Of a stretch of DNA of 25,646 bases, positions 3,826 through 25,359 are shown one piece after another. Position numbers and translations under genes: made by a program. The notes beneath the pieces were generated by a model, which did no database searches, had not been told where the DNA came from, and saw nothing but the letters and a program-made list of their open reading frames with translations. Origin of the DNA: a virus; IMG/VR virus record IMGVR_UViG_3300022200_001004, positions 1 through 25,646 of that record; one strand, given 5' to 3'. Every line of letters starts with the position of its first letter. Position 1 is the first letter of the stretch.

Positions 3826-3826
3826 T

Positions 3827-7552: not shown

Positions 7553-10417
7553 ATGAGTCCAACAACTGATTTTCTGCACGACGTTCTGCCGGAAGCCGGA
7601 CGGTATTGTGTAGTCGGAATTAGCGGGGGAAAGGTCCTCCAAGAATTTGTAGATGACATCGACACGGTAGCAGAGCGCGCAGAGAGCTTTGCTGACCGCA
7701 AGATCGACGCGTATTTTGCCGTTGCCTCGTTCAAAGAAGGCAGCGAGAAGCGCACCCAAGAAAACGCCCAGTGGATGAAGTCATTCTGGCTTGATCTCGA
7801 CTGCGGGCCGGGCAAGCCATACCCAGACCAAGCGACAGCACTCGAAGCGCTTGAAGACTTTAGAGTTAAAGCCAAGCTGCCGCACCCAAGCATCGTCAAC
7901 TCTGGCAACGGCGTTCATGTTTATTGGCTGCTCACGCAGTACATCCCAAGCTCGGCGTGGTCGCCAATCGCAGAACGACTGAAGGCCGCGTGCGCACAGC
8001 TAGGGTTGAACGCTGACCCAGCAGTTACCGCTGACGAAGCGCGTATTCTGCGTGTACCGCAGACCCTGAACTTCAAAAATCCAAACGATCCGAAGTGGGT
8101 TACGCAGTATGAGAAAGGCGAGCCAGTCGACGTTGACCTGTTTGCAGACTGCCTAGCTGCGCTTGATCTGCCAGAACCAAAACGCGAGCGGGTCAAGGTA
8201 GACACCTCGCAGCTGAGCGAAACCGCTAAAGCCCTGCTGGGTAACAAGCAGTCGCGGTTCGGGCTTATCGTAGCCAAGACCAAAAAAGGTAAGGGCTGCA
8301 ACTTCCTCAAGTACGCGATCGAAAACCAAGCTGAGTTAGAAGAGCCGCTTTGGCGAGCCAGCCTGTCTATCGCATGGGCTTGTGATGATCGCGACACGGC
8401 CATACACAGAATATCTGAACGGCATCCGGGTTATACACCGGAAGACACGATTGAGAAGGCATGCCAGACCAAGGGGCCATACACCTGCGCGGTGATTAAG
8501 GGGCTAAGCGCTGACCTCTGCCAAGGCTGCACGCACAAGATCACCAGCCCGATCCAGCTCGGTGCTGAAGTTAAGCGTGATGCTAGTGAACTGTTTGAGG
8601 TGCCGGACGAGGATGATCCGCACGGTGATGGCACGATAGCAACGCAGGTGGTTGCACAGGCGCTGTTCAAGCCGCCGTTCCCGTACTTTCGAGGCGCCAA
8701 CGGCGGTGTATATCGTGAAGACAGAGATGAGGACGGGGACAAGATTGAACAGTTAATTTACGAGCATGACTTGTACGCGTCCACCAGACTTGTTGACCCG
8801 AACGACGGTGAGTGCGTGGTGTTTCATCACGTCCTGCCACGGGACGGAGAGCGCGAGTTCATGGTGCCCATCAAGGACATGCACTCGGCAGACCAATTCA
8901 AAAAAATCCTCGGCGGCAAAGGTGTCGCTGGTAGCAAAAAACAGATGAACGAAATTATGGACTACGCAATTCGCTATACAAAAGAACTTCAGATGCGGGA
9001 AAAGGCCAAGGAAGCTAGGCTGCAATTCGGTTGGCACGCTGGCAACACCGAGTTCGTAGTAGGCAACCGGGTGTACACCAAAGACGGTGTTTCCCATAAC
9101 TACCCAAGCAGCACCACGGCCAACATCATTGACTCTTTCAATGTGAAGGGCTCGCTGGAAACTTGGAAGAAGATTTTCAACGTGCTGAATCAGCCGGGCA
9201 TGGAAGCGTTGCAGCTAGTTGCCCTGTCTGGGTTCGGCGCCCCGATGATGAAGTTCACTGGCGTAGCTGGTGGCGTAATCAACCTAATCAGTAACCACTC
9301 CGGCACGGGTAAGTCGACCGCTGGCCGTCTCGCGCTAAGCGTGTTCGGACATCCTGAGAAAACCCTGCTGACGCAGCGGGACACTATGGCCTCTCGCCAG
9401 CATCGCCTTGGCGTGCACAACAACCTCGTTGCGCTGTCTGATGAAATGACAAACGCACCAGCTGAGTTCCTGTCTGATGAAATCTACGGCACATCTCAGG
9501 GCCGTGGCCGGAACAGAATGAACGCCACCAGCAACACCGAGCGCGTCAACGAGTCAACGTGGAACCTGATCCACCTGATGAACTCCAATGCGTCGATGAT
9601 TAGCAAGCTAGTTAAGTTGAAGGCTCGACCGGACGGCGAGCTGATGCGACTCATCGAAATTCCAGTTAAGCGCCAGACTATTGAGGGCGCAGATGCCCTG
9701 TTTGCGATGCTTGAGGAAAACTACGGAGTTGCGGGCGAAGTGTACGCCCCGTGGCTGGTGAAGAACGCTGAGAAAATACCCGAGCTGCTAGACCGTCAGC
9801 GCGAGCGTATCTGGAAGAAAGTAGACAAGCGGATCGAAGAGCGTTTCCACATCGGCACCTACGCGGCCAACCTCGCATCTGGGCATGTAGCCAAGGCTCT
9901 CGGTCTGATCGAGTTCGATCTTGAAAACTTAGAAAACTGGTGCTGCGAGTTGATTAAGACCAGCCGCAGCAGCATGCAGGCAGAGGTGATCGACGCCTAC
10001 GAGTTAGTCGGCGAATTTATTTACGAAAACCTCCGCCAGACAGCCGTGATTGGGACCGAGCAAAACGTAGTCTCTACGTTCGCCAACGATTACGCCACTA
10101 TCACCCCGAACGGCGGCAGCTGCACAGTGCGCTACGAGGAGGATGGCAACATGCTCTACATAGCCTACAAAAACCTACGCGACTACTGCACCACCCGCCA
10201 GTTCACCATCGACGACGTGCTGAACGGATGCTCGGTGGCTGGCGGACCATACACATTCCGAAAGAAAACCAAGAAGCGCATGCTGGCTAAGACCCGGTAC
10301 ACAATGTCTCCGCCGGTTGATGCAGTCGAGTTCCATGTTGCGCCTGAAGAAGCCGAAGCGTTCATAGCGTCTATGGAGGAGCTGCCGGAATACGAAGATG
10401 CTGAAATGGAATCTTGA
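7553..10417 (+). CDS. Primase-helicase (AEP primase fused to an SF3/AAA+-like ATPase)
   Basis: A 954-aa two-part replication protein; GGAA at 7543-7546 precedes ATG 7553. The N-terminal part is an archaeo-eukaryotic primase: WLDLDCG (Asp81/Asp83, metal ligands), VNSGNGVHVYWLL (Ser117 to His122) and RILRVPQTLNF (164-174). A cysteine cluster follows (Cys304, Cys312, Cys323, Cys326), probably a metal or Fe-S site. The C-terminal ATPase has Walker A NHSGTGKST (Lys587), Walker B VALSDEM (Asp630-Glu631) and a following LIHLMNSN sensor-like segment. It should synthesise primers and unwind the fork for the phage polymerase encoded upstream, replacing separate DnaG and DnaB-type genes. The next small gene overlaps its 3' end by 20 bases. 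Confidence 0.92.
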   Translation: MSPTTDFLHDVLPEAGRYCVVGISGGKVLQEFVDDIDTVAERAESFADRKIDAYFAVASFKEGSEKRTQENAQWMKSFWLDLDCGPGKPYPDQATALEALEDFRVKAKLPHPSIVNSGNGVHVYWLLTQYIPSSAWSPIAERLKAACAQLGLNADPAVTADEARILRVPQTLNFKNPNDPKWVTQYEKGEPVDVDLFADCLAALDLPEPKRERVKVDTSQLSETAKALLGNKQSRFGLIVAKTKKGKGCNFLKYAIENQAELEEPLWRASLSIAWACDDRDTAIHRISERHPGYTPEDTIEKACQTKGPYTCAVIKGLSADLCQGCTHKITSPIQLGAEVKRDASELFEVPDEDDPHGDGTIATQVVAQALFKPPFPYFRGANGGVYREDRDEDGDKIEQLIYEHDLYASTRLVDPNDGECVVFHHVLPRDGEREFMVPIKDMHSADQFKKILGGKGVAGSKKQMNEIMDYAIRYTKELQMREKAKEARLQFGWHAGNTEFVVGNRVYTKDGVSHNYPSSTTANIIDSFNVKGSLETWKKIFNVLNQPGMEALQLVALSGFGAPMMKFTGVAGGVINLISNHSGTGKSTAGRLALSVFGHPEKTLLTQRDTMASRQHRLGVHNNLVALSDEMTNAPAEFLSDEIYGTSQGRGRNRMNATSNTERVNESTWNLIHLMNSNASMISKLVKLKARPDGELMRLIEIPVKRQTIEGADALFAMLEENYGVAGEVYAPWLVKNAEKIPELLDRQRERIWKKVDKRIEERFHIGTYAANLASGHVAKALGLIEFDLENLENWCCELIKTSRSSMQAEVIDAYELVGEFIYENLRQTAVIGTEQNVVSTFANDYATITPNGGSCTVRYEEDGNMLYIAYKNLRDYCTTRQFTIDDVLNGCSVAGGPYTFRKKTKKRMLAKTRYTMSPPVDAVEFHVAPEEAEAFIASMEELPEYEDAEMES

Positions 10418-10670: not shown

Positions 10671-10697
10671 GCCCCCTCTAGCGAGGGGGCTTTTTTT
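10671..10697 (+). terminator. Intrinsic terminator of the rightward operon
   Basis: An eight-base-pair GC-rich stem (GCCCCCTC 10671-10678, GAGGGGGC 10683-10690) with a TAGC loop is followed directly by seven T (10691-10697), a textbook Rho-independent terminator for the plus strand. On the minus strand the hairpin is followed by AACCACTT, not a U tract, so it should not efficiently stop the opposing virion transcript, whose last stop codon lies 4 bases beyond the T run. Confidence 0.93.
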
Positions 10698-10700
10698 CGC

Positions 10701-13700
10701 CTAGAAGAAATCTCCCCGACCGGCCATTGCTCGCATTTCTTTGAGGTTCATGCCGCTGAGGATCTCATTTTCTAGCTGGCGAAGGTCAGAAATCATCTGT
10801 TCCTTCTCTTCAGAGTCACCGCTGGTCTTGGAAATCTGCCGGATCGCGGCACGGATCTTATTCAGACGGTTGGAGAGGTTACGCACCGCCTTAGCCATAG
10901 CCACACGCTGCGCATTTTCGTCGTCCGCCAAGAACGGATCGAGGTCTTCTGGGCGGTACTTCTGTAGCTCCAGATACTCTTTGTACGACATGTTCACGTC
11001 GCGGGACATTTCGTAGAAGTAGCTGCGCATGCCAGAGCCTTCTTCGCGGTTCAAGAAGCGGCTGAAGCCCGGCAGGGCTGCTGCGTAATCCTGAATCGAC
11101 CGTGACGGACGGATGCCTGCGTAGTCGCCGAGCAGGTTGGAGGTCCACAGAAGCGCACCACCCACAGAACCGAAGTAACCACGGATCAGCTGGTCTACCT
11201 TGATCGGAGACAGGCCCTCGCCACCGAATACGGCGTGAGAAGCATCGCCAATGAAGTTCGCCAGCTCGGAGGTGTATTCCGTCTGCTGGAGGTAGGCTGG
11301 CAGGCTTGCGTACGCCTGACTGACCAACGGGCGGCCAGTGAAGAAGTTGCGGTCGATTGCCACTTCCACCATAGGCTTGAGGATCTGCGGCACTGCCATC
11401 GGGCTGGCGACACCGTTCACTAGGGCAGTAGCCAGCGCATCACGGAAGGTACGACCGTCTTCCATAGCGTTGTCGGTCATCAGGCGGTAGCTGTGCTCTG
11501 CGATGATCTTCGGCAGGAGGAACAAGTCAGTACGCAACGGTAGGCCAAAGCCACCCATGCCCGGAATCATCAGCATGCGGTCGCGGTACATCGGATCGAG
11601 TTCTTCGTAGTCTTCGTCGCCGCCCATCATCATGGCGTACAGCATCATCATGGCAGTAGCCATGCCGAGGTTCTGATACAGACGGGTGCGAGACGCCTCG
11701 TTCTTCGGGGAGATGCCTTCGCCAGTCAGCGTGGAAGCCTGCACATTCAACGCCTGCAACCAAGCGTTAAAGAACGGAATCATGCGAGCCATACCGTGAA
11801 TGATCGGAGAGGAGCCCTTGCGGCGGAAGTTGATGATCTCAAACGAACGCTCAACCGCTTCGGCCTGAGAGGTGCCATCAGCTATAGACAGGCTGTAGAC
11901 CGCCTGACGCACAGCGTTATCTGACGCCATAGAAAAGTTTTCCATCTTGTCTAGGAGACTTTTCCAGCCAGACTTGTACTTGGACTTGCTAAGGCGGCTC
12001 TCGATGTCGTTCACCACAACAGCGGCACTGTAGTCTCTGGTGCCAACTGAGGCGAAGCGTTTCAGGAAGTCATGGGCTTCACTGGTGCCGCGCAGGGTCT
12101 TAATAAACTCTTTAATTACGTAGTACGGAATCTTGATCGCCTGCATCGGGCTCAAGCCAGACGTGAACATTGCACCGAAGGCGTCCTGCGTCAGCTGACC
12201 AATGGAGAAGATCGGGTTGAGTACAACGGATTTACGCAGGAAGTTGGTGAACCACGATGCCTGCTTGAGGTACGGGATGCCGAGGCCTTCCTGACCCTTG
12301 AACGCTTCAATGAACAGCGGGTCTTGAGCAACGAAGGTGCGCTTCTTGCCCTCCATGTACATCTCAACCTTGCCGCGCTTGTATTCTTCGATGTCGACCT
12401 TATGGGCAGCAGTTACTTCCTGCGCCATGCCGAGGTCGATCATCGTGTTCATTAAACGAACGCCGGAGTGATTACGCACGGCTGCTTCTACGGAGTACTC
12501 AACCCACTTCGCCATGTTGTCGAAGATGTCGTTGACCTCGTTTTCAGAGCCCTTCATTCGCTTATCTTGATATTCAGCTTTAATGCCGCTGATGAAATCA
12601 GGTAAGCCTTCCTTGTCTTCAATCTGCTTAACGCGCTGGAACGGAACGTAGTCGACGTTATCCAACCACGCTTCCGCCTTTTCTTCAGTCAGCAAGCCAC
12701 CCTGAACCATTACGTCCACGGCGTTCTTACGCATCTTGTTCCAAATCTCGACTACCTTGGCTGCTTCAGCGTTGCCTTCGTAGTTCTTGAGCAGAGCGTC
12801 TACTGCTGACTCTTTAACGTGCAGCTTGCGCTCTTTCAGTAGCTTTTTGAGCTTCCTGTACTCGGCGCTGCTGGCCTTGTTTTCGGTCTTCAGCTCGTCG
12901 AGGCGGCGCTGCTTCTTGCGGGTGTCTTCGTACAGAGACTTGAGACGCTTCATCTCAAGGTAGCGGTGCAGCACGCGCTGCGCGCGGAACGGATCTAGGC
13001 CGACAGACTTACCAAACGCTTCAACGGCACGCATCAAGCTGGCGAAGTTAGCGTCGTCATCCACAGCACGCCACTTGTACAGCTTCTCGTCGTACGTGAT
13101 GTTGCCGTATTCAAGGAAATTACTCGCTACACCCTCAGCGTGGAACGTCTGGGAGGTCGAGATTTCTAGCATGCGACCGATGATTTCGGCCTCGGCATCC
13201 GGCATTTCGCGCATACGACGGCGGGCTTCACGCTGGGCGGCTGCATCAGCGGAGACGATCTTAGTAAGCTTTTCGTCCATCCAACGGCGACCAGACGCAC
13301 GGTAGTCATCCACCGTCATGCGGACCATCTTGCCGTCGACTTCCTTGTACGCGAGCTTCTTGGCGCGATCGCGAACAGTCTTCGGAGATTCTGGCTCGCC
13401 AATAACGCCGCCCGACTCAACGGTAGCCTGTACGAAATCCTGACCAGTCTTGGCACTCAGCATCGGGCCTTCGCGGGTAGCGTTGACCGCTGCGTCACGC
13501 AGCATCCAGTTTTTAGCCGCGCTGTGAGCTATGTCGGAGAGGTCGAACAGGATCTTGTCTACGTTGCGCTCAGCAATGGCCTGCTTCCAAGACTTAGGCA
13601 AGAAGCCAATGCCCTTCAGCCAGTTCATAATGCTGTTGATGAGGCGCTTGTAGAACGGGATGTCGGTGTGCTGGTCTACAACGTGCGCCAGCACTTCTTC

Positions 13701-16700
13701 CATTACCTCGCTCGGAGAAATCTTGTAGTCGGTCTTAACCCTTCTGTAGGCTTCGTAGATTACAGACTCGGTCTTGTTCAGCGGACGCCCCTGCTTTTCT
13801 ACGCGGCGGATCGCCTGACGGATGAAGTTCTCCGCCTGCATGTAACTCTGGTCGCCCATCACACCACGCCAGCCAGCATGCACACCGGCCTCGTGCACCA
13901 GAACACGAAGGGTTTCGTTCGGGTTGATGTTGCTCGCTACGAGATAGACAACAGGCTCAGCCTTGGCATTCGGGTGAACGAAGCCACCGATAACCGCACC
14001 CTGCTCAGCACCAGCCTCAACCGCAGCACGAGTCTTGCGATCAAGGCGTGGGTCGTTCATGCTGTCCAGCAGCACTACGCGACCGGAACGGATGCCAGCG
14101 TCTAGGGCGTCCTTGTCGAATTTGCGTTCGAGAACTGCACGCAGCTCCTCGGCGCTGTCGAACTGCGGGGTAGATACCATGCGGTTCGCACGCAGGCTGG
14201 TCTGCTTAGACTTCCACGCTTCAGCGGCGTCGAGGTGCTCTTCCACGAACTCGTTAATGATGTCCTTGGCGTCGAGCATTTCCTCTGTGGTGGCGGTCTC
14301 GTCTTGGTAGATTTCAAGCGCGTCGGTGAGGCGCTCTACTTCCTCGTCAGAAACAATATCCGCCTGCGAAACGTAGTTCAGTACCTTCTCGCCGTTCTTG
14401 ACTGCCTTTCTACGCAGCTGCTTAGACATGGCGTCACGGGCGAACTCGTTGGTCTCCTGATCCACCTGATCCTGCGTGACTTGCAGGCCGAAGCTGTCCT
14501 CTTCGTTGAACTGCTCAACGTCGCGAGTGTTACGGACGCTGAAGTCTTTCGACTTTTCAATAGCGTAGATAGCGTTCTGGTACTGCCTTGGGCTGAGCGT
14601 AGTGATGCGTTTGTCAGGCGTCTTGCCGCCGGATTCCTCCAGCAGAGTTGGCATGCGTGGCAGGGCGATGTAGACCGGCCCAACCATAGACTTCGCGCGC
14701 TCTTCGCGCTCGATCCGAGCCTGTGCCTGTTTCTTGAGCGTATCTATTGTCGGACGAGAAACTCTAGACTTCTCGCTGTACTCGCCTGCTTTCTCACGGC
14801 GCTCTTGAGCAAGGCGATCAGCCGACTCTTTAATCTGACCGTAACGCGCCTCTTTAGCGACGCCCTTCTGAATACCTGAATCACGCTTAATAGCGGTAAT
14901 GTCAGAGAGTGCACGCTGTGCCTGTTCGAGTTCCGCGCGCACTCTGGAGCGCAGCATTGACGGCTTGCTTAGTTCAGCCTTCAGCCTGCTCACAGCCTTA
15001 GTGACGGTATCTTCAGCCAGCTTCTCAGCAACGTACGCGCCGATCAGACGCTCGGTGTCAGCAGGGGTCAACGGGGCACGTTTGCCCTGACGCGCACGCT
15101 TATTGGCCTTAATCTTGTTGGCGATGTCCGCCTGCACCCGAGCCGGGTCGACAATACCTTTCAGCGTCTTAACTGCTTCAGGCACGCGCATCGGCTTGGT
15201 TTCGATCTTCCGACCTTCTTCATCAGTGCCTACCGCCACTTTTAGACGGTTAGAGACGGCGCGGATCGCAGCGTCAATCTTGGCATCTACGATCGGCCCT
15301 TCGGTGTTTAGGTCTGAAATTTCAAATTCGGCGTCTTTAACCGCCTTGGTCACTTCTTCACGGACGACCTGCGCAGTGGCACCACCGCCGCCAAGGTTTC
15401 TGACCATGAACTGACTGGTCTTATCGACGATGTCGGCGTCAAACTCATCTAGTGCAGACGAGATAGCTCCTGCTCTTCCAGCGTCTCGTACAGGAGACAG
15501 GCCACGGCCTCCCACTCCAGCCGTTTCAGATGTCTTAGCCCCCTCGGTGGTACCGGATTCGGACTTAACTCCAACCAATTCCACGCCCTCTCCAGTTGGC
15601 GCGCCGTCATCGGTAACTTTCTGTTTGCCACCCGGAACACCACGTACGGGTGTTGGCCCTTTGGCAACTTCATTGGCAGCCTCCTGAAAAATCGTTGCGC
15701 CTTCGTCGCCGTAGTTTCTACGCACGTTCTCGACCGCAGCGGCGATGTCACCGCCCTTGGTAACGAGCGCTGAGGCTTTTTCTTGCAGGCGTAGTTTGGT
15801 GTCTTCGTCTAGAGGAGCGACCTGTTTGACTTCTGCCGCCCCCTCGTCTACTGGCGCTACTGGCGCAGCTGGACCAGCTGCCAAACGAGCCTTGATTTCG
15901 GAGGACAGTTTCGGAGCCCATTTGGTGTTTACGTTTTCTAGCTCAACGGCGTATGCCTCTGCTTCAGCACGACCAGCGTCAGATTCAAAATCTAAGTTGG
16001 CGACCTTGCTCGCTACTTCCGTATACCGCTTGCCCTTCTTAGGCAGCGCACCTTTCTCTTTTAAGGTATCAACGTCGAAGTCGTAGTCAATGTCTTCTAC
16101 CTGCGGAACCGCCTGAGCTTGGGCGCCGGCAGGTGCGCCAGTTGGCGCAGTAGTAGGAGTTACTACAGGTGCTCTAGGCGCAGGCTTGCGGTCAACAGTT
16201 TCTGGAACCTGCGGGGCTTCACCACGTTGGGTTTCGCTCAACCAACGGGCGCGCTCAGCAGCGGCTTCCTGCTCGTTATAAACAGGGTCGCTAACAGTCC
16301 CATCAGGGAATGTGACTCGGTATCCGGGGTCGTAGCCAAGCTGCGGGCGTGCTGCGCGTTCAGCCTCTTCAGCTTCCTGCTTTTGTACGGCTGCTTCAGT
16401 AGCCTGACGAGCTTCTTCCAGCCTCTCGTTTAACTTTTTCGCAGCTTTCTGCGTCTGGTACGCATTCACTAAGTTAGACGGACCACCAAGACCGGCGCCG
16501 AGCATGAAGCCGGTAGCACCGGCTTTCCCAACACCTTCAAACACGTCACCTTCAGCACCAGCCTGAATCGCGCTGATGTTAGAGAGTAGCTGACCGCTGG
16601 CTTCTTCAGCGAACTCTTGTCCGCCTTCACCAAGCGCACCAATAGCCGTGGCTTTAGTCTTACCAAGCTTAGGCACAGCCTGCTTAGTGATTTCTTTAGC

Positions 16701-17528
16701 AATCTGCTTAGCGGCTGGAGTGCCGATAACCGCACGTTCAATAGCCGTACCGCCCGGAATCAGGGCGCTGGTGCCTAAAGTAACAGTAGCAGCGATGGCA
16801 GCATCTTCACGCGCTGCGGACATAGCCTGTTCGGTAGCGGCTTTTTCATCTACGCCATCAGCCAAGAGCTGCTCTAACACTCGGTCGTAGGTTTCCATGC
16901 CTACATCTGAGGCATTTAGCCCGCCGCCAGCGGCTACGGCGCCAACAGTACCAGCCTTGGCGATAACTTTATCGGCGACATCCTTAGTCAGAACTTTAGT
17001 CAGCGCACGAGCTACAGTAGGAGTGTTTGCAGCGGCACTAGCTACGCGCCCAGCAGGGGCGATAACGCCGGCGAGTTGCGGAACCTGAGCCACGCCCATA
17101 TCCGCCAAGTACATCGGGTTCTGCGCTAGGAACGCAGCTGTGTCCCAGAAGCCTTCAGTCTCGCCAAACAGCTGCTCTTGGGCTCTGATTTTTTCAGATT
17201 TAGAGGCTTGCAAATCTTCACGACCGCGCTCAAACGCTTCACGCATCTGAGTAGCTTCTTTCGGATCATAGCCGAGGAGTTGCATCAAGCCGACGGCACC
17301 GGACCCAATGTCCATGAGCCCTTGGCCGAGTGATTTGCCAGTATCCGTTACGAACTCACCAAGCCCACGAGTGCTGGATGCAGTCTGCTCAAGTTGAGCA
17401 CGCTGCTGGTCCTCTTCGTAGATGCGGTACCGTGCAATCTCCTCGGCTTGCTGCCTCGTTAGTTGCTCCGGTGACTCAAAATTTACTACGCGCCCATCAA
17501 CTGTTTCTAGAGAGTACGAGTACGCCAT
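10701..17528 (-). CDS. Giant polyvalent/internal virion protein (2275 aa), zincin-like motif and LPD38-like region
   Basis: Starts at ATG 17528 with AGGAG upstream; last gene of the leftward virion block. The N-terminal third has Ala/Gly-rich hydrophobic segments, then long Ala/Lys/Glu-rich linkers. Near residue 1205 comes VLVHEAGVHAGWRG (His1212, Glu1213, His1217), the HE-x3-H-x-G motif of zincin-like domains in phage polyvalent proteins; EEVLAH (1277-1282) could add a ligand. A coiled coil (about 1535-1570) precedes an AWLDNVDYVPFQR segment. Residues about 1750-2130 (LNPIFSIGQLTQDAF ... FFNAWLQALNVQ ... MMMLYAMMMGG) resemble LPD38 of polyvalent proteins. Such proteins are packaged and ejected with the DNA. 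Position matches T7 gp16, but no transglycosylase motif is seen. Domain calls are by eye. Confidence 0.88.
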   Translation of the reverse strand: MAYSYSLETVDGRVVNFESPEQLTRQQAEEIARYRIYEEDQQRAQLEQTASSTRGLGEFVTDTGKSLGQGLMDIGSGAVGLMQLLGYDPKEATQMREAFERGREDLQASKSEKIRAQEQLFGETEGFWDTAAFLAQNPMYLADMGVAQVPQLAGVIAPAGRVASAAANTPTVARALTKVLTKDVADKVIAKAGTVGAVAAGGGLNASDVGMETYDRVLEQLLADGVDEKAATEQAMSAAREDAAIAATVTLGTSALIPGGTAIERAVIGTPAAKQIAKEITKQAVPKLGKTKATAIGALGEGGQEFAEEASGQLLSNISAIQAGAEGDVFEGVGKAGATGFMLGAGLGGPSNLVNAYQTQKAAKKLNERLEEARQATEAAVQKQEAEEAERAARPQLGYDPGYRVTFPDGTVSDPVYNEQEAAAERARWLSETQRGEAPQVPETVDRKPAPRAPVVTPTTAPTGAPAGAQAQAVPQVEDIDYDFDVDTLKEKGALPKKGKRYTEVASKVANLDFESDAGRAEAEAYAVELENVNTKWAPKLSSEIKARLAAGPAAPVAPVDEGAAEVKQVAPLDEDTKLRLQEKASALVTKGGDIAAAVENVRRNYGDEGATIFQEAANEVAKGPTPVRGVPGGKQKVTDDGAPTGEGVELVGVKSESGTTEGAKTSETAGVGGRGLSPVRDAGRAGAISSALDEFDADIVDKTSQFMVRNLGGGGATAQVVREEVTKAVKDAEFEISDLNTEGPIVDAKIDAAIRAVSNRLKVAVGTDEEGRKIETKPMRVPEAVKTLKGIVDPARVQADIANKIKANKRARQGKRAPLTPADTERLIGAYVAEKLAEDTVTKAVSRLKAELSKPSMLRSRVRAELEQAQRALSDITAIKRDSGIQKGVAKEARYGQIKESADRLAQERREKAGEYSEKSRVSRPTIDTLKKQAQARIEREERAKSMVGPVYIALPRMPTLLEESGGKTPDKRITTLSPRQYQNAIYAIEKSKDFSVRNTRDVEQFNEEDSFGLQVTQDQVDQETNEFARDAMSKQLRRKAVKNGEKVLNYVSQADIVSDEEVERLTDALEIYQDETATTEEMLDAKDIINEFVEEHLDAAEAWKSKQTSLRANRMVSTPQFDSAEELRAVLERKFDKDALDAGIRSGRVVLLDSMNDPRLDRKTRAAVEAGAEQGAVIGGFVHPNAKAEPVVYLVASNINPNETLRVLVHEAGVHAGWRGVMGDQSYMQAENFIRQAIRRVEKQGRPLNKTESVIYEAYRRVKTDYKISPSEVMEEVLAHVVDQHTDIPFYKRLINSIMNWLKGIGFLPKSWKQAIAERNVDKILFDLSDIAHSAAKNWMLRDAAVNATREGPMLSAKTGQDFVQATVESGGVIGEPESPKTVRDRAKKLAYKEVDGKMVRMTVDDYRASGRRWMDEKLTKIVSADAAAQREARRRMREMPDAEAEIIGRMLEISTSQTFHAEGVASNFLEYGNITYDEKLYKWRAVDDDANFASLMRAVEAFGKSVGLDPFRAQRVLHRYLEMKRLKSLYEDTRKKQRRLDELKTENKASSAEYRKLKKLLKERKLHVKESAVDALLKNYEGNAEAAKVVEIWNKMRKNAVDVMVQGGLLTEEKAEAWLDNVDYVPFQRVKQIEDKEGLPDFISGIKAEYQDKRMKGSENEVNDIFDNMAKWVEYSVEAAVRNHSGVRLMNTMIDLGMAQEVTAAHKVDIEEYKRGKVEMYMEGKKRTFVAQDPLFIEAFKGQEGLGIPYLKQASWFTNFLRKSVVLNPIFSIGQLTQDAFGAMFTSGLSPMQAIKIPYYVIKEFIKTLRGTSEAHDFLKRFASVGTRDYSAAVVVNDIESRLSKSKYKSGWKSLLDKMENFSMASDNAVRQAVYSLSIADGTSQAEAVERSFEIINFRRKGSSPIIHGMARMIPFFNAWLQALNVQASTLTGEGISPKNEASRTRLYQNLGMATAMMMLYAMMMGGDEDYEELDPMYRDRMLMIPGMGGFGLPLRTDLFLLPKIIAEHSYRLMTDNAMEDGRTFRDALATALVNGVASPMAVPQILKPMVEVAIDRNFFTGRPLVSQAYASLPAYLQQTEYTSELANFIGDASHAVFGGEGLSPIKVDQLIRGYFGSVGGALLWTSNLLGDYAGIRPSRSIQDYAAALPGFSRFLNREEGSGMRSYFYEMSRDVNMSYKEYLELQKYRPEDLDPFLADDENAQRVAMAKAVRNLSNRLNKIRAAIRQISKTSGDSEEKEQMISDLRQLENEILSGMNLKEMRAMAGRGDFF

Positions 17529-17546
17529 GAACGGCTCCTAGCGCGA

Positions 17547-19337
17547 TTATTTGAATGTGATGCCTTCGTACAACGGAGGAGCCGTCATCATACCGGTACC
17601 GCCTTGAACGTCCAGAAGTCTGTTCAGCTCAGCGGTGTATTGTTGGATCATTTGATCTCTGTACTTATTGCCAGCCGCATCTGCTGGGTTATCAGCCTTG
17701 GCGCTTTGGAGATCGTTAATAGCCTTACGCAGCGTGTCAGCGCGAGAAGACGCAGCTGTAGCGTGGCGGTACAGAGCGGTTTCTCTAGAGCCTAGAACGT
17801 CAGTCATCTGCTTACGGATGTCCTTCTTACGCTCAGACTCAGCCTTACGGCCTTCGGCCATAGCCTTCAGACCAGCTACACCGCCTTCACCTGCGGCGCC
17901 CCAGAAATTCGGGTTGTCGCTCGCCATCATATTCAAGCCCATCGCCATGAGGAAATCGCTCATAGCGCTGCTCTTGTCTTCGCCACGTTCAGCACGCAGC
18001 TCGTTCAGATACTGGAGCAGCGGGTCGCCAGCGGCACGGCCTTCAGCCTTAACATCTTCATCGCGGTACTGGTTAGTAATAGTGTCCAACGCGCGCTGTC
18101 TAGCGGCGGCATCGGCCTCGGCAGCTACACGGGCACCTTCACGGGACCCCGGATGGTAAGACTTGGCAGCCTCTGCTTCAGCCCGCGCACGTTCCTGCTC
18201 GGCACGTTTAGATTCAGTGAACTTTCTAGCCGCAGCTTCGCGCTCTTCCTGAGTTTGCGCCTGAGTAGTTTCTTCCTGAAACTGCTTTACTTCAGGTGCG
18301 CCAGAGAAAGCTGGCTGGCGTGGCTGAGTTGCTGCGCGGGCTTCAGCTTCCTCTTTAGTAGGTTCGCTGATGTTCCACAAATCTCTCGACGTAACGTAAG
18401 TATCTCCCCGCGCCTGAATAGCAGCGGCGTTGGCTTCATCAGCCTTCTTACGCTCAAACTGCGCACCACCCGGCTGATAGCTCTTAATGTCTTCAAGCAC
18501 CTGCGCGTCAGATCGCTTAGATGGGTCGTACCCGTCTGCGGCGTTATCTTTCAGCCAATTTCTAGCTTCTCCAGCGGTCATTTTGTCACCCGCCGGAACA
18601 GGTTCAGCTGCTTGCACTTCACCCATACCCAGCAAGCTAGTGATGCCGCTAGTTATCGTATCCATGAAGCTTGGCTCTGCTTTAGGCGCAGGTTCAGGCT
18701 CAGCCATAGGGGCAGGAGGCAGCGGTGCTTGAGTCGCAGGCACTGGGGAGAACCCGGTGTCCGGGGTCGGCTCAGCTACATCTACGTTAGGCGCCATCAC
18801 CCCAGCGTATGTAGCCGCAATATTCATAACCTCATCGTCAGACATGCCGGTCGTGTCCACGCCCTTGGCAGCCAGCATCGCGCGGGCTTCAGACGGAGTA
18901 CCGCCGCCTTGCAGGGAGACGATGCCACCTTCAGCTTTCTTGACGCGCTTCGCAGCTGCATAGTGAGACGACGGGGCCTCCAGCATCTTTGCGGAGCCCG
19001 GAGGGCAATCGGTTTCGCCGGTTACTGGGTTTTTCCAACACGCAGCGCCGGTACCCTGCTTGTACGCATCACTTGTGGAGCCGCCAGCAGCAAAACTCAC
19101 CAGCCCGCCAGAGGCCATCTGCTGAGCCTGCATCGGCAGCTGGGTGATCCCACCCATAATTTCGTCAGCCACCGTGCTCTGCGCCTGCGGCTGGCTTGAT
19201 GTCTCGTCACGCATTTTCTTGCGGCGCTGCATTTCAGCGAGCACTAGATACTGCGGAGCTGACCCCATCTGCATGGAGCTGAGCAGCTGCTGGTCAGAGA
19301 GGTCTTTAAGGTCGTTTTGTAGCTTGACGATGTTCAC
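17547..19337 (-). CDS. Internal virion protein (596 aa), T7 gp15 position
   Basis: Starts at GTG 19337 with AAGGGG six bases upstream, 10 bases after the stop of the previous gene. The N-terminus (about 1-45) is helical and ends in a basic patch. Two Gly-rich motifs follow, MASGGLVSFAAGG (74-86) and KAEGGIVSLQGGG (134-146), then a Pro/Ala/Glu linker. The middle is a long Ala/Glu/Arg-rich helical stretch (EEREAAARKFTESKRAEQER), and the C-terminal third has FLMAMGLNMMASDNPNFWGAAGEG followed by more helix. It probably belongs to the ejected core proteins that carry DNA across the cell envelope. Family not named; role inferred from gene order and composition. Confidence 0.8.
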   Translation of the reverse strand: MNIVKLQNDLKDLSDQQLLSSMQMGSAPQYLVLAEMQRRKKMRDETSSQPQAQSTVADEIMGGITQLPMQAQQMASGGLVSFAAGGSTSDAYKQGTGAACWKNPVTGETDCPPGSAKMLEAPSSHYAAAKRVKKAEGGIVSLQGGGTPSEARAMLAAKGVDTTGMSDDEVMNIAATYAGVMAPNVDVAEPTPDTGFSPVPATQAPLPPAPMAEPEPAPKAEPSFMDTITSGITSLLGMGEVQAAEPVPAGDKMTAGEARNWLKDNAADGYDPSKRSDAQVLEDIKSYQPGGAQFERKKADEANAAAIQARGDTYVTSRDLWNISEPTKEEAEARAATQPRQPAFSGAPEVKQFQEETTQAQTQEEREAAARKFTESKRAEQERARAEAEAAKSYHPGSREGARVAAEADAAARQRALDTITNQYRDEDVKAEGRAAGDPLLQYLNELRAERGEDKSSAMSDFLMAMGLNMMASDNPNFWGAAGEGGVAGLKAMAEGRKAESERKKDIRKQMTDVLGSRETALYRHATAASSRADTLRKAINDLQSAKADNPADAAGNKYRDQMIQQYTAELNRLLDVQGGTGMMTAPPLYEGITFK

Positions 19338-19347: not shown

Positions 19348-20589
19348 TTAACCCATGTTCGCAAATGAGCCTAGACCGGCGATGCCAGCCCCCGCTAACT
19401 GTGTGCCTAGACCAGCGGTAGAGGCGGTCTGAACAGTCTGAGATGTGGACTGCACAGGTATGCCACGCAACATAGCGTTGTAGAACGCCAGCTGATTTCT
19501 GTTGTAGTCGCGAGCGTTGATGAAGTCCTGCTCTGCACGATCGAGTTCGCGCTGAGCCAGCGCCTGTTCTTCCGCACCAGTAGCCTTCTGGAGGTTGAGG
19601 CGGGCGATCTCCACCGCTTGCTGAGTATTGCCAAGCTGCTCCTGCGCCTGAGCCACCTGCATGGACAACTGAACGCCCTGCTGGCCGTAAGTAGCGGCAA
19701 ACTGATTCGCCGCTTCCTGACTAGTAGCCACCTGCTGAGCCATATTGGCAGCGAACTGCTCCTGACCCTCTGTCATCTGGGCTGCGGACTGAGCGAACTG
19801 CTCCTGCTGCTGTTTAGCCGCTTCAGTCTGCTGCTGAGCCGTGAGACCCATCTGACCAGCTTGCTGCTGCATGGCTTGTTCAGCGCCGAACTGCTCACGA
19901 GCCTGCTGATACGCAGTCTGCATGCCAGTTGCTTCGATATTAGCCATGCGGTCGAGCATTTCGGACTCAGCCACCGCTTCTTCAGCACCAAAGCGACCAC
20001 CACCAAACGCACCAGCCTGCACGGCCTGAGCCGCACGACCTGCTTTACCGCGTTGGAACTCTTTCATCGCTTCAGCTTTTTGAACATCCAGCACATTGCG
20101 CATGTACGGGTCCATCATGGCCTGCGCCGTGGCAGTATCAAAAGTGCCTGCCTGATAGCCCGGAGTTGCGGCAGTGGCTGTATAGCCAGAAGTTACGCCG
20201 GTTGGGGCGTAAGACGTACCGAAGGTAGTCGGGGTGTAAGACTGAAGCCCTTGCGCTGCTGTAGCAGCGTTGGCTAAACCAGCACTAGCAGCGGCCATTT
20301 CGCTCGGAGTTTGCAGGGCGTAGATGCCCTGCATGGCAGTAGTTTGGTCTGGGGAGAAGCCAGCGATGGTGTCGCCGGTGTACGCTGAATATGGCCGCAA
20401 GTACTCCTTGTTCGATTCAGCCATCAGCTGCTCGAAGTACGGAATCTGTTCTGGGGACAGGCTAACCTGCGTGGTGGTGTTCTGCCCACCGCCACCGCCG
20501 CCACCTTCATAGGTGCGGCTGTACTTGGATTCGTTGAATGCGCGGACCGGCAGGTCAGCTACGTCTTGGAATTTACCCCAGCGGCTCAT
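19348..20589 (-). CDS. Gln/Ala-rich internal virion protein (413 aa), T7 gp14 position
   Basis: ATG 20589 overlaps the stop of the GNAT gene (ATGA) and has GGAGG upstream; a longer in-frame start at 20643 lies inside that gene and is less likely. A Gly-rich stretch (EGGGGGGGQN) precedes LSPEQIPYFEQLM and YSAYTGDTIAGFSPDQ, a pattern frequent in phage virion proteins. An Ala/Thr/Tyr-rich region and AQAVQAGAFGGGRFG follow. Residues about 215-370 are a Gln/Ala/Glu-rich coiled coil (QQQTEAAKQQQEQFAQ). It may be the outer-membrane-channel component of an ejection apparatus by analogy with T7 gp14; this rests on position and size, not sequence identity. Confidence 0.82.
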   Translation of the reverse strand: MSRWGKFQDVADLPVRAFNESKYSRTYEGGGGGGGQNTTTQVSLSPEQIPYFEQLMAESNKEYLRPYSAYTGDTIAGFSPDQTTAMQGIYALQTPSEMAAASAGLANAATAAQGLQSYTPTTFGTSYAPTGVTSGYTATAATPGYQAGTFDTATAQAMMDPYMRNVLDVQKAEAMKEFQRGKAGRAAQAVQAGAFGGGRFGAEEAVAESEMLDRMANIEATGMQTAYQQAREQFGAEQAMQQQAGQMGLTAQQQTEAAKQQQEQFAQSAAQMTEGQEQFAANMAQQVATSQEAANQFAATYGQQGVQLSMQVAQAQEQLGNTQQAVEIARLNLQKATGAEEQALAQRELDRAEQDFINARDYNRNQLAFYNAMLRGIPVQSTSQTVQTASTAGLGTQLAGAGIAGLGSFANMG

Positions 20590-20999
20590 ATCGCCACCTC
20601 CACAATAGAGTATTTTTCTGCAAAGCCAAACTTCATTTTCCAAAGTCTGGCGATGGACTCGCGGGCGGCACCCTCAATATGGGTGGCCCCGTTTAACCGG
20701 AGAATATTGCGTAGCTGGTCGAAAACTTCGGGGGTGGAAACAAACTTCCCGCCCACAGCGGTAATCATCGCTACACGACTATTCGGTCGGTTGATATATT
20801 CGATTGTGCAGGCGCCCTTAATGTCGCCAGAGGTTTCGTCTACAGCTACTAGCAGGTGCCAGTGGCCCTGAGACAGGTATACTTTAGCATGTTCCGCGTC
20901 GTAATCACCCTTAGAAAAGTCAAGTGCGGATTTGATATACCGCTCGACTAACGGCCAAACTTGCTGGACGTTCTGGGTGAGTACCGGCTGGATTTTCAT
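20586..20999 (-). CDS. GNAT-fold protein, probable internal virion protein (T7 gp13 position)
   Basis: ATG 20999 overlaps the preceding stop (ATGA), giving 137 aa, the size of T7 gp13 and of small phage GNAT proteins. The pattern is GNAT-like: an N-terminal helix (VQQVWPLVERYIKSAL), strand pair (HWHLLVAVDE ... IKGACTIEYI), helix VFDQLRNILRLNG, strand HIEGAA and a terminal WKMKFGFAEKYSIVEV segment. The R/Q-x-x-G-x-G/A loop that binds acetyl-CoA is not evident, so enzymatic acetylation is doubtful. It lies between virion genes and is coupled on both sides, which suggests a structural or assembly role. Confidence 0.75.
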   Translation of the reverse strand: MKIQPVLTQNVQQVWPLVERYIKSALDFSKGDYDAEHAKVYLSQGHWHLLVAVDETSGDIKGACTIEYINRPNSRVAMITAVGGKFVSTPEVFDQLRNILRLNGATHIEGAARESIARLWKMKFGFAEKYSIVEVAI

Positions 21000-22324
21000 G
21001 CTGGCATGTATTTCTTCGCGTTAATTTCCGGTGCCTGCTCAGTGGTACCAGTGCGAGCCTTGCGGATTCTGTCCATCATGGCGTACAGCTGCTGGGCACC
21101 GGCATCAGAAGAGCCGTTTCCAAGACCGCTAACTACATCAGCAGGGACCACAAATTCGTTGGTGCTGAGAGCCGCTGGCTGAGTACCGTCTATAGTAGCC
21201 GGGATGTCGTCGCTCATGCCGTCGCCTACGGAGCCGCCGTTTAAGTAGCCGCCAGCCGCTTTACCGCCAGCCGCCTTAGCCTTAGCTTGAAGGTCTTCAA
21301 CGTCCTTACTCCCGCCCATCAATGCCTGAAGAAACGCCATCTGCTCTGGAGCCATCTGCGGAGGAGCCGAAGGAGCCGCATCAGCTGGGCGACCACCGCC
21401 CATCAGACCAATAATTCCGCCAGTGGCAAAAACCGGGCGGCCAGTGAACGGGTTGATAGGAAGGTCTCGGCCCACATCAGCGTACTGCTGACGAATACCC
21501 GCACGAGTCTGCTCCAGACGGCGCTGACGATCAGCTTCAGCCTGCTCACGGGCATCTCCACTAGCTTCGATAGACGCCTGCTGCATTTGCCCGGCCTTGG
21601 CTATACCTGCGGTAGAGAGAGGGAGCGCCTGAGATTTGGCAAAAGAGCCTAGAGCCTTACCTGACGGGTCAGAAAGAAGATTCTTAGCGCCTTGGAACAT
21701 CTGGCCTGCTTTAGTGGTGCCAAAAGGCATCGCCTGCGAACTAGCACGCCCGGCGATCCGGCCAGTGATGTCCTGCCCCAACTGCCCGCCGTACTGAGAT
21801 TCCATTACGCGACCCAGAGTCGCTTGGTCCATGCCCTGTCCAGCCAGCCGTGCAGCATTCTGCTGAGCGGCTGATACAGCCTGATTCTTAGCTACGTCAG
21901 GAACTACTTGGCTACCAATCTGCTTGCCAGCTTGATCGAAAACCGCCTGACTGGTAGTCATTTCAGGGATGGGAGCCCCGCCAGCACCTTGAGCGGCCAG
22001 TTCACCGCCAACGCCAGACATCGCACCAGCGGTAACGCCAGCCAACAGGCCTTGTTCTAGAGAGCCAGTAGTTGCTGCGGTGGTGCCGCCTACCAGACTG
22101 CCGAGTACCCACGGGCTAATCCCCGGCATCATCGCACTAGCGCCCAAGCCGACGATAGTTGGCAGCGCGTCTTTAAGACTGAATGCTTCTGGGTACCCAG
22201 TCACAGGGTTTGTGGTCAGCTCACGGCCCATCGACTTGGCGAGGCTTGCCAGACCGGCAACTTCCTCGTTGTTCATGTGGACCATTGTGTTGTCGCCGTA
22301 GCGACCAAATTGTGCTGGATTCAT
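20996..22324 (-). CDS. Gly-rich virion protein with EFVVPADVV motif (442 aa)
   Basis: ATG 22324 has AGGG upstream; an in-frame TTG at 22330 is less likely. The N-terminus (about 1-45) is polar, then an Ala/Gly/Met-rich hydrophobic region (IVGLGASAMMPGISPWVLGS) may insert in membranes. The middle is Gln/Ala-rich. Near residue 300 comes FATGGIIGLMGGG, similar to motifs in the 596-aa protein. The C-terminus has GGYLNGGSVGDGMSDDIPA, then NEFVVPADVVSGLGNGSSDAG and a basic helix (YAMMDRIRKAR), a pattern recurrent in virion proteins of environmental podophages. Likely an internal or ejected protein; its exact place in the particle is unknown. Confidence 0.8.
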   Translation of the reverse strand: MNPAQFGRYGDNTMVHMNNEEVAGLASLAKSMGRELTTNPVTGYPEAFSLKDALPTIVGLGASAMMPGISPWVLGSLVGGTTAATTGSLEQGLLAGVTAGAMSGVGGELAAQGAGGAPIPEMTTSQAVFDQAGKQIGSQVVPDVAKNQAVSAAQQNAARLAGQGMDQATLGRVMESQYGGQLGQDITGRIAGRASSQAMPFGTTKAGQMFQGAKNLLSDPSGKALGSFAKSQALPLSTAGIAKAGQMQQASIEASGDAREQAEADRQRRLEQTRAGIRQQYADVGRDLPINPFTGRPVFATGGIIGLMGGGRPADAAPSAPPQMAPEQMAFLQALMGGSKDVEDLQAKAKAAGGKAAGGYLNGGSVGDGMSDDIPATIDGTQPAALSTNEFVVPADVVSGLGNGSSDAGAQQLYAMMDRIRKARTGTTEQAPEINAKKYMPA

Positions 22325-22335
22325 AACCAAAACCC

Positions 22336-22662: not shown

Positions 22663-23329
22663 GCGAAATACTCTGACAAATTAGGGTGACTGAAGGCACG
22701 GCAGGGCAAAAAGTCTCAGCTGCGTACGCCTGAAGTGACGTATCTAAGCTGTCAACAGCCCACATAGCCTGTAGGTAGTCCCCAGCGTTTACCTGAAATA
22801 AACCAGCACGGGCGACAGTTTTAGCCTCGCCGTTGTCATGCACAGTAATTCGCATAGTTGATCCAGCGACGTCTGTACCGTTAATTCTAGGCCAGAACCA
22901 GAAAGTTTTAGCATTAGCTGATTCAGAGTTAAGCTGCGCCGTGAACTCAAGTTTGTACTTACCAGCCTTAGAAAAAACAATTTTACTGGAGTCCACACTA
23001 TCTACTGAGATGTGCTTAGCGAGAGCTGTTGTGTTCCACGTAATCTCTTTGGCTGTGTCAACTGACGTTTGGGTTTGGTCTGTGAAATCAACAAAAGCGC
23101 CGTAAGCAAATACACCACGATCTTCAAGCGTAGAACGAGAGATAGGTCCAACTGTGCCGGTCATCCAATCTTCAATCTGGCGCTGATCCGACTCAACCTG
23201 CGGGGTATACGTGCTGTTTAGCTGACGAACAATTTGCTGTAACGCTTCGAGGGCTTGGTTGAACGCAGCAGGGTTGTAGTTCGGGTTAGTCCCCGAGCTA
23301 GGCAAGCGGATGTTGGTGATTTTGCTCAT
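22652..23329 (-). CDS. C1q/TNF-like jelly-roll virion protein (225 aa), possible fibre
   Basis: ATG 23329 overlaps the stop of the 677-aa gene (ATGA). Residues 1-65 form a helical N-terminal part (FNQALEALQQIVRQL) that may trimerise or attach to the particle. Residues about 70-215 read as a jelly roll: GVFAYGAFVDFT, KEITWNTTAL, KIVFSKAGKYKLEFTAQLNS, FWFWPRING, GLFQVNAGDYLQAMWAVDS. The order 'strand - KAGKYKLEFTAQ - GLFQVNAGDYLQ' is what C1q-like phage domains show. It may be a short tail fibre, a receptor-binding protein or a decoration protein; the sequence does not decide. Confidence 0.75.
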   Translation of the reverse strand: MSKITNIRLPSSGTNPNYNPAAFNQALEALQQIVRQLNSTYTPQVESDQRQIEDWMTGTVGPISRSTLEDRGVFAYGAFVDFTDQTQTSVDTAKEITWNTTALAKHISVDSVDSSKIVFSKAGKYKLEFTAQLNSESANAKTFWFWPRINGTDVAGSTMRITVHDNGEAKTVARAGLFQVNAGDYLQAMWAVDSLDTSLQAYAAETFCPAVPSVTLICQSISHEQ

Positions 23330-25359
23330 CGACGCCCGTCCGTGCGCTGGTCAATACGGGTCGAACCATATTTCCACCAGTCACCGAGGTTCTTGCTCGT
23401 GATAGACAGCGCAAGCTGACGGCCACGAATGCGGGTGTTGATCTTAGTTGTGCTGGCAGTCACGGTGCCGATGTTCTCCTGCACCTGATCGCTCAGCGGG
23501 TAGTAGCGAGCTTGGAACTTGAGGTCCACGCTTCCGCCTTGAATTGTGAAGTCAGGCACAACACGGTGGATGAACATCAGGCTGTCGCCCTCACCAATGT
23601 CGAAGTCACCAGAGACGATCTGCGCAACCATTGGCTCGCCGTCTGCGTCGTAGCCTTTCTCGTGCTCAAACAAATAACGGCTCGGTCCGGTAGCGATCGG
23701 ATACTTAAACGCTCCACGGTCTACCCAAGCAGTGCGTTCTAACTTACCAAGCCACCACAGCTGGTCAATCAGGCCAAACGTAACGTAGTGGTACGGCTCC
23801 TTAGACCAGTTGCTCGTATCTGGGTTAGAAACAGTCGCTTCATCATCATGCGCAGCAGCCACCGTGCCGCGAGCACCTCGCGTACAGCCAGTGAAACTAG
23901 CATCCGTCTTACCGGTGTACTCAATAACTTCAGTGCCGATCTGGATCGCACCTGTCAGAGCGTAGCCGCCGGTAGAGTTCACGGTGACAGTCGTATCAGA
24001 ATCAGAAATCGCACCGTTCAATGAGCGGTTGCCTACAGATGTAGCTGGGTAGAACCATGTGATCTCGTGGTTTTCACGGTCGAGTGAGGCATGGACCTTA
24101 GCTTTCTGCTGGTCATCCAGCCCTTCAAACACATAACGCTGCACGGTACACGGCTGAACGGCACTACCACCTTGGTAGATGTAGAACGCGTTGTCGCCCA
24201 TCCAGTACACGACGTTGTTGTACGCAGCCCATGCGTTTGAGCTGACGATACCGGTCGAGGTACCTGCTTGGCTGAATCCGAAAGTGTACGGAGGGCCGAT
24301 GTACTGCATGGCGTGAACGGTGTCGTCTGTCCAGATCAGCACCTGTGATTCCGTATTCGCAGCAGCCATGATCTCAGTGCCACCGGTCAACAGCTGGTCG
24401 CCCGCCGTATTCGTCGAAGTCACCGTCCAGTCGGTGTAGTCTTCCTGCTGGCACCAGCGCACCTGCATGGCATCCAGATCGGTCGAAGCACTCGCCGTGC
24501 CCGGCTCATTACAACCGAAGCACACAAGGTGACGGTCGCTCGTCACGGTGAAATGATTGACCTTATGCGGAGCCTGCGTGATCTGCGTAGCACGAGTCAG
24601 CGGATTAGTTGCATCCCAGAGGTACAGCGAGCCGCCGATGTAGCCCATGATGAGGTCTTCGCCCCAACTGGCAAAGTGCCAAACACGAGGGTCTAGTGAC
24701 ACACCGCTGGAAACAGCTGGACGGTTCCAGCCAGCACCCGAAGCGCGTGCTCTATTCCAAGCACCTGCACCCCAGCCGTACTGGTAAATACCGTTCAGCG
24801 CCCCCGGATTGATCTGGTACGCAACAGACACAGACGCACCGCCGCCACCCGTCACCCCAGCAGAGCCGGTAGTAGTTACAGTGATCGTGTAAGAATTGGC
24901 GTCGACGTACGTAATTTTGTGCTCGGCGTTAATTTCTGCCGCAGGGATGCCGTCTACATCAGCAGAACCAGAAATCGTGATATACGCGCCGTCGTCAGCG
25001 CCGTGCGCCGTGTCATTAACGGTGATAACCGCAGACCCAGCTGACGTGTCAAATGGGTTGGTTAGCGCCTGAGTTTCACGAATCGGCGTGATGTCCGTCA
25101 GACTGCCGCCGGTTTCAACGTAGACTTTTTCGTTGGTGGCAATCGCTAGGTAAATCGTACCGTCCAGCGTACGCTGGAGGTAAAGGGCACGTGCAACGCC
25201 AATAAGCTGATCTGAGAGGTACTTTTCCCAGCCGCCGATCTTTTCAGGTTTGCCTGAGCGGAAGCGAATCTTGTCAGACTGAATCCACCCGCCCTCGTTC
25301 GTATAGGGGGTGTTTTCCTTGTTGACGCCCGGCAGAAAGTCTAGTTTTGTCAGCGCCAT
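23326..25359 (-). CDS. Tail-hub / DNA-stabilisation protein (677 aa), T7 gp12 or P22 gp10 type
   Basis: ATG 25359 has GGAGG upstream. The N-terminus (FLPGVNKENTPYTNEGGWIQSDKIRFR ... KIGGWEKY, about 8-47) is the usual opening of phage stabilisation/tail tubular proteins, followed by beta-propeller-like repeats (LYLWDATNPL, DLIMGYIGGS, VVYWMGDNAFYIY). Two small beta domains appear inserted: about 105-185 (AVITVNDTAHGADDGAYI ... YTITVTT), resembling the E1-FCCH-like phage module, and about 448-510 (TTVTVNSTGGY ... IQIGTEVIEYTG ... CTRGARGT). The C-terminus (GRQLALSITSKNLGDWWKYGSTRID) is also typical. It should form the tail nozzle that plugs the head-tail channel. Its gene leads the recognisable T7-like order. 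Confidence 0.88.
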   Translation of the reverse strand: MALTKLDFLPGVNKENTPYTNEGGWIQSDKIRFRSGKPEKIGGWEKYLSDQLIGVARALYLQRTLDGTIYLAIATNEKVYVETGGSLTDITPIRETQALTNPFDTSAGSAVITVNDTAHGADDGAYITISGSADVDGIPAAEINAEHKITYVDANSYTITVTTTGSAGVTGGGGASVSVAYQINPGALNGIYQYGWGAGAWNRARASGAGWNRPAVSSGVSLDPRVWHFASWGEDLIMGYIGGSLYLWDATNPLTRATQITQAPHKVNHFTVTSDRHLVCFGCNEPGTASASTDLDAMQVRWCQQEDYTDWTVTSTNTAGDQLLTGGTEIMAAANTESQVLIWTDDTVHAMQYIGPPYTFGFSQAGTSTGIVSSNAWAAYNNVVYWMGDNAFYIYQGGSAVQPCTVQRYVFEGLDDQQKAKVHASLDRENHEITWFYPATSVGNRSLNGAISDSDTTVTVNSTGGYALTGAIQIGTEVIEYTGKTDASFTGCTRGARGTVAAAHDDEATVSNPDTSNWSKEPYHYVTFGLIDQLWWLGKLERTAWVDRGAFKYPIATGPSRYLFEHEKGYDADGEPMVAQIVSGDFDIGEGDSLMFIHRVVPDFTIQGGSVDLKFQARYYPLSDQVQENIGTVTASTTKINTRIRGRQLALSITSKNLGDWWKYGSTRIDQRTDGRR

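What the first reader, a model, noticed from the sequence alone, without database searches (positions are those of the whole stretch)
10701..17528. 2275-aa ejected polyvalent protein with an HEAGVH zincin-like motif
A 6.8-kb single reading frame ends the virion operon and combines membrane-prone N-terminal segments, long low-complexity linkers, an HE-x3-H-x-G-x-R motif (His1212, Glu1213, His1217) and an LPD38-like C-terminal region. Polyvalent proteins are described as cargo ejected with phage or conjugative DNA that acts against host defence or remodels the cell. Here such a protein occupies the T7 gp16 slot, so one molecule may both build the ejection conduit and deliver a protease-like domain. 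The T7 gp16 transglycosylase is not visible.
Basis: partly seen in the sequence, partly recalled or inferred. Interest (0 to 1): 0.65.

Follow-up and report, generated by a model that had tools for sequence, protein, structure and literature searches.

The report
Phage polyvalent protein with protease-LPD38 cassette
This is a giant virion protein of an uncultured short-tailed phage, probably ejected into the host with the DNA, and its conserved half pairs a predicted zinc protease with a domain of unknown function (LPD38); the class is known, but the almost fixed pairing across the family is informative.

Summary
The 2275-aa frame is real. It lies on the minus strand (17528->10701) and is the last gene of a virion operon. 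LPD38 is confirmed (Pfam E=7e-24), and the conserved module spans residues ~1587-2271. The motif is HExxxH (H1212, E1213, H1217), not classical HExxH. I found the missing third ligand, E1278, which is invariant in 37/37 non-redundant HExxxH relatives with the motif near the module. A modest-confidence AF2 model (pLDDT 74, pTM 0.70) has the zincin order of elements, but no solved zincin matched it. Iyer et al. 2017 already described HEXXXH peptidases and LPD38 in phage polyvalent proteins, and an LPD38 protein of phage JC1 was found in virions. So this is a new, deeply diverged member of a known kind. New here: of 78 non-redundant LPD38-module proteins with enough upstream sequence, 76 carry HEx(2-3)H, 60 of them 240-380 aa before the module (about 6 expected). 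HExxH and HExxxH types interchange on the module tree, while cargo domains vary. This favours a processing or packaging cassette over a host-directed effector. The "T7 gp16 slot" is not supported: the operon is P22-like, no gp16 similarity was found, there is no transglycosylase, and N-terminal membrane segments are weak.

The parts
10701..17528 (-). Giant polyvalent virion protein, 2275 aa, ATG start at 17528, stop at 10701-10703
   Evidence: 3 nucleotide differences (2 synonymous codons, 1 I/V) from IMG/VR contig 3300025646_000304
14163..17528 (-). Residues 1-1122: rapidly diverging N-terminal half, Ala/Gly/Glu rich, no recognised enzyme; 24-56% identity to the nearest relative where aligned
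13494..14162 (-). Residues 1123-1345: predicted zincin-like metallopeptidase (HExxxH type)
   Evidence: 60-73% identity to nearest relative
13878..13895 (-). HEAGVH motif, residues 1212-1217 (predicted zinc ligands H1212, H1217; general base E1213)
13695..13697 (-). E1278, predicted third zinc ligand (EEVLAH), invariant in 37/37 HExxxH relatives with the motif 240-380 aa before the module
10716..12770 (-). Residues 1587-2271: conserved C-terminal LPD38 module, mostly helical
11091..11618 (-). Residues 1971-2146: Pfam LPD38 (PF18857)
   Evidence: E=7.3e-24
17535..17539 (-). AGGAG, likely ribosome-binding site of the giant gene
   Evidence: sequence
17547..19337 (-). 596-aa gene directly upstream; weak homologues sit 10-100 bp upstream of the giant gene in 5 related loci
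19348..20643 (-). 431-aa gene matching PHROG 4287 'DNA ejection protein'; homologue found upstream of the giant gene in 51 related loci (those printed lie about 1.6-2.5 kb away)
   Evidence: (E=9.4e-20)
20586..20999 (-). 137-aa acetyltransferase-like protein (name by eye only, no Pfam hit); homologues upstream in 12 related loci
20996..22330 (-). 444-aa virion-operon protein; homologues upstream of the giant gene in 30 related loci
23326..25359 (-). 677-aa 'stabilization protein' (P22 gp10 type), virion structural PHROG 3287
   Evidence: (E=2.2e-63)
10671..10690 (+). Terminator-like hairpin between the convergent early (+) and late (-) gene sets

Best explanation
It is a phage-type polyvalent protein, packaged in the capsid of a short-tailed phage with a P22-like tail-completion gene and ejected with the DNA. 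Its C-terminal half is a conserved cassette: a zincin-like metallopeptidase (HExxxH plus E1278) about 375 residues before a ~690-aa LPD38 module. The LPD38 module is proposed to be the part that holds the protein in the virion and engages the ejection machinery. The peptidase is proposed to cut the polypeptide, in the capsid or after ejection, separating the variable N-terminal half from the module. Shown: the frame, LPD38, the invariant ligand set, and the conserved pairing and spacing. Inferred: zinc binding, catalysis, packaging, ejection, and the site and time of cutting.
For: LPD38 at E=7.3e-24. H, E, H, E1278 and A1281 invariant in 37/37 non-redundant HExxxH domains lying 240-380 aa before the module. 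AF2 order helix-strand-helix-strand-strand-helix(HExxxH)-helix-helix(E1278), matching the core described by Iyer et al. (PMC5512222). Upstream ejection-protein gene (PHROG 4287) conserved in 51 related loci. The LPD38 giant protein of phage JC1 was found in CsCl-purified virions with 51 unique peptides (PMC9144972). 76 of 78 LPD38-module proteins carry HEx(2-3)H, 60 of them 240-380 aa upstream against about 6 if placed at random. The N-terminal half diverges (24-56% identity) while the cassette is 55-87%. Cargo upstream changes between relatives: ParB-like nuclease, helicase, pyrophosphatase, methylase. Precedent: P1 DdrB is proteolytically processed before packaging.
Against: No solved structure matches the peptidase model (best PDB E=0.24, TM<0.2), and Pfam has no significant peptidase hit. 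The LPD38 module model is low confidence (pTM 0.28), so its role rests on conservation and position only. N4 virion RNA polymerase carries a similar peptidase yet is packaged uncut. Lederberg EXVC029P has the module without the motif, so the peptidase is not essential to the module.
Confidence: 0.58

Rival explanations
1. The peptidase is an effector: it is ejected intact and cleaves a host protein (defence, envelope or regulatory target) early in infection.
For: Iyer et al. list this as one possible role of polyvalent peptidases. No other enzyme is visible in this protein, so release of other cargo is less obviously needed here.
Against: The peptidase keeps a nearly fixed distance to the LPD38 module across dozens of phages while cargo varies, and HExxH and HExxxH types occupy the same slot. 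A host effector need not be tied to one partner domain.
Confidence: 0.24
2. The protein is mainly an ejection-conduit component in the manner of T7 gp16; the peptidase-like domain is structural or a degenerate remnant.
For: End-of-operon position next to a PHROG 'DNA ejection protein'. The module occurs in a T7-like gene order in Pelagibacter phage Lederberg. One BFVD fold hit of the peptidase model is named 'Internal virion protein D' (E=0.0097, probability 1.00).
Against: No gp16 similarity, no transglycosylase, no strong membrane segment. The ligand set is strictly conserved, unlike a remnant. The operon has a P22-type stabilization protein.
Confidence: 0.14
3. The HExxxH motif is a coincidence in a non-peptidase helical protein.
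For: No PDB or Pfam peptidase match. HExxxH is longer than the classical motif.
Against: 29 motifs seen against 1.1 expected over the family. E1278 is invariant far from the motif in 37/37. HEXXXH peptidases are a published set in polyvalent proteins.
Confidence: 0.04

Closest known systems
Phage-type polyvalent proteins with zincin-like MPTase of the HEXXXH set (Iyer et al. 2017, PMC5512222)
   Same: Giant protein in a virion gene neighbourhood, HEXXXH plus downstream Glu; LPD38 is one of the phage-type domains of that study
   Different: No second recognised catalytic domain, so 'polyvalent' in the strict sense is not shown for this protein; a deep lineage of its own with one relative (L009)
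DarB-like giant proteins of Bcep22-like podophages (BcepMigl gp69, JC1 gp69)
   Same: End of virion operon, C-terminal LPD38 module; in BcepMigl a peptidase motif about 326 aa before it; JC1 gp69 shown in virions
   Different: Those are about 4500-4660 aa, JC1 gp69 adds transglycosylase, methylase/helicase-like and LPD3 regions, and BcepMigl has the HExxH form one residue shorter
Aeromonas phiARM81mr, Escherichia Pondi, Vibrio D274, Achromobacter CF418P1 giant virion proteins
   Same: HExxxH peptidase upstream of the LPD38 module
   Different: About 24% identity over the module; different or additional cargo domains
T7 gp16
   Same: Large late protein, last of the internal/ejection genes
   Different: No detectable sequence similarity, no transglycosylase, different operon type
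Bacteriophage N4 virion RNA polymerase
   Same: Virion protein whose C-terminal region, with a peptidase-like domain, is needed for encapsidation (as cited in PMC5512222)
   Different: N4 carries an RNA polymerase and is packaged unprocessed; no relationship to LPD38 was tested here

Membership tests
LPD38 (PF18857) | Profile score over the curated cut-off | tested here: met
   85.3 bits against 27, positions 1-184 of 189
Zincin-like MPTase, HEXXXH set | H-E-x3-H on a helix | tested here: met
   Residues 1212-1217, in predicted helix 94-136 of the model
Zincin-like MPTase, HEXXXH set | Glu ligand on a later helix | tested here: met
   E1278 invariant, predicted helix 163-177 of the model
[quoted passage not shown] match to known zincin folds | tested here: inconclusive
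   Element order fits; no PDB match; marginal matches to phage polyvalent/MuF/internal virion proteins in BFVD
Zincin-like MPTase, HEXXXH set | Zinc binding and proteolysis | not testable with these tools
   Needs protein
Polyvalent proteins | Several domains of unlike biochemical activity in one polypeptide | tested here: inconclusive
   Peptidase-like domain plus LPD38 only; no other family hit
Polyvalent proteins | Encoded near virion genes | tested here: met
Polyvalent proteins | Packaged and injected | not testable with these tools
   Only by analogy to JC1 gp69
T7 gp16 internal virion protein | Sequence or profile similarity to gp16 | tested here: not met
T7 gp16 internal virion protein | N-terminal lytic transglycosylase | tested here: not met
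T7 gp16 internal virion protein | T7-type internal core gene order | tested here: not met
   P22-type stabilization protein in the operon; no matches of the other virion genes to the T7 locus

The most novel reading that the evidence does not exclude
The peptidase and the LPD38 module form one functional cassette across many phages. A peptidase of either HExxH or HExxxH type is kept at a set position before a virion-targeting module, and its task is to free the ejected cargo from that module.
Probability: 0.4. Interest if true: 0.6.

Novelty: new member of a known kind. Interest (0 to 1): 0.36.

Why it matters
Whether the proteases inside giant phage virion proteins cut the phage's own cargo or host proteins is open. 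Among 78 non-redundant LPD38-module proteins a peptidase motif is nearly universal and mostly sits at one distance from the module, whatever the cargo. Iyer et al. named LPD28, not LPD38, as the peptidase-linked LPD. This makes the processing hypothesis directly testable in a cultured phage that carries the same cassette, such as Escherichia phage Pondi.

Tried and rejected
- Plasmid collection: no match.
- Scans with window + L009 pairs found only those two contigs.
- Bacterial and archaeal genome scan (one only): no relative. Its two patterns are narrow, so absence of prophages is not shown.
- PDB sequence profile searches with the peptidase and LPD38 alignments: nothing significant.
- T7 gp16 relationship rejected.
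- A shared N-terminal packaging signal was considered: a short 'PDG/DGR..' start resembles those of L031-L035, but most relatives lack it; not claimed.
- Klebsiella ZX1 has the peptidase but its C-terminus is not an LPD38 module by my profile, so it was left out of the cassette counts.

Full report
WHAT IS THERE. The frame at 10701-17528 is on the minus strand, begins with ATG at 17528 behind AGGAG, and codes for 2275 aa. It is the last gene of a minus-strand run that also holds a 677-aa stabilization protein (PHROG 3287, E=2.2e-63; annotated 'stabilization protein' in several phage hits), a 444-aa protein, a 137-aa protein that looks acetyltransferase-like by eye, a 431-aa 'DNA ejection protein' (PHROG 4287, E=9.4e-20) and a 596-aa protein. 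It converges with the plus-strand replication genes, with a terminator-like hairpin at 10671-10690. The window is an IMG/VR virus record. A second record, 3300025646_000304, holds the same gene with three nucleotide differences and extends about 8.2 kb further left.

DOMAINS. Pfam finds LPD38 at 1971-2146 (E=7.3e-24). Homology with cultured phages covers 1584-2257 at about 22-27% identity, so the conserved module is much longer than the Pfam domain. The HEAGVH motif at 1212-1217 lies in a domain at about 1123-1345. Aligned with nine other HExxxH domains, the invariant columns are G1181, H1212, E1213, H1217, E1278 and A1281; over 37 non-redundant ones with the motif 240-380 aa before the module, H, E, H, E1278 and A1281 are 37/37 (the first three are so by selection of the motif, E1278 and A1281 are not). 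The AF2 model (pLDDT 74, pTM 0.70, ten sequences) has three short strands, a long helix with the motif and a later helix with E1278, the order given for zincin-like peptidases by Iyer et al. (PMC5512222). Fold searches did not confirm the zincin fold against solved structures. In BFVD the best hits are phage MuF, polyvalent and 'Internal virion protein D' proteins at E=0.002-0.01 and TM 0.38-0.46. So the catalytic site is well supported by conservation and only weakly by fold. The BcepMigl relative has the same domain with HExxH, one residue shorter.

FAMILY PATTERN. Scans of IMG/VR gave 17 loci with one query pair, and 260 relatives with another query, of which the best 80 were kept. After clustering at 95% identity, 83 proteins carried the module and 78 had more than 450 aa before it. 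Of these, 43 have HExxxH and 33 have HExxH as the nearest motif before the module, and 2 have neither: L096, which is cut off at its start, and Lederberg. In 60 of 78 the motif is 240-380 aa before the module, against about 6 if motifs were placed at random upstream. All 43 HExxxH cases match the peptidase profile; of the HExxH cases only three do (BcepMigl clearly, L026 weakly, and L114 through a separate HExxxH motif further upstream), so most HExxH domains are too diverged to be called the same domain and may be another peptidase clade in the same place. On a quick tree of the module the type changes at least 9 times among the 60 (7 without the longest branches); over all 76 motif-bearing proteins 17 times, 11 forced by well-supported branches. 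The sample is biased toward the query's neighbourhood, and the tree has some long branches. The window protein and L009 form a deep, isolated lineage. Upstream cargo differs among relatives: ddrB-ParB, InPase, LPD3, helicase, methylase. Between the window protein and L009 the N-terminal half is 24-56% identical and the cassette 55-87%. A homologue of the 431-aa ejection gene lies upstream of the giant gene in 51 loci.

HOW IT PROBABLY WORKS. Known for relatives: the LPD38 giant protein of phage JC1 is in purified virions (PMC9144972), and P1 DdrB, which has a C-terminal peptidase domain, is cut before packaging. Inferred here: the protein is packaged, held and ejected through its C-terminal module, and the peptidase separates cargo from module. 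The steady peptidase-module spacing with changing cargo is the main argument for processing over a host target. It is an argument from arrangement, not a demonstration. The N4 precedent (peptidase region needed for encapsidation, protein packaged uncut) warns that packaging itself may be the role.

Right about the frame, motif, LPD38, end-of-operon position and lack of transglycosylase. The T7 comparison fails: no gp16 similarity and a P22-type stabilization gene. The membrane segments are weak.

NOVELTY. HEXXXH peptidases and LPD38 in phage polyvalent proteins were described in 2017; LPD38 is there called phage-only, but LPD28, not LPD38, is named as peptidase-linked. I therefore file the protein as a new member of a known kind. 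The near-obligate pairing is the part I did not find stated, in the open-access papers I could search.

Noticed in passing
L004:1456-2547 and 2575-3891 (contig IMGVR 3300025646_000304, left of the window): AAA/MoxR-like ATPase gene followed by a DUF2201 metallopeptidase-like/VWA gene with HENYH: a MoxR-VWA type pair in a phage.
   Followed up: partly
window 7553-10417 (+): 954-aa protein with a DUF927 domain (E=1e-24), probably a primase/helicase-like replication protein; conserved next to the giant gene in L009.
   Followed up: no
window 686-2701, 3169-3825, 4150-5757 (+): Family A DNA polymerase, PD-(D/E)XK nuclease and SNF2 helicase genes in one early block.
   Followed up: no
L006:8938-12702 (Pelagibacter phage Lederberg EXVC029P): 1254-aa LPD38 protein in a T7-like gene order with no HEx(2-3)H motif: a natural module-only case.
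   Followed up: partly
several LPD38 proteins, e.g. Pondi 277, D274 268, L022 279, window protein residue 301: A recurrent E-G-x-Q-E-like stretch after an Ala/Gly-rich helix in the N-terminal 230-330 residues; meaning unknown.
   Followed up: no
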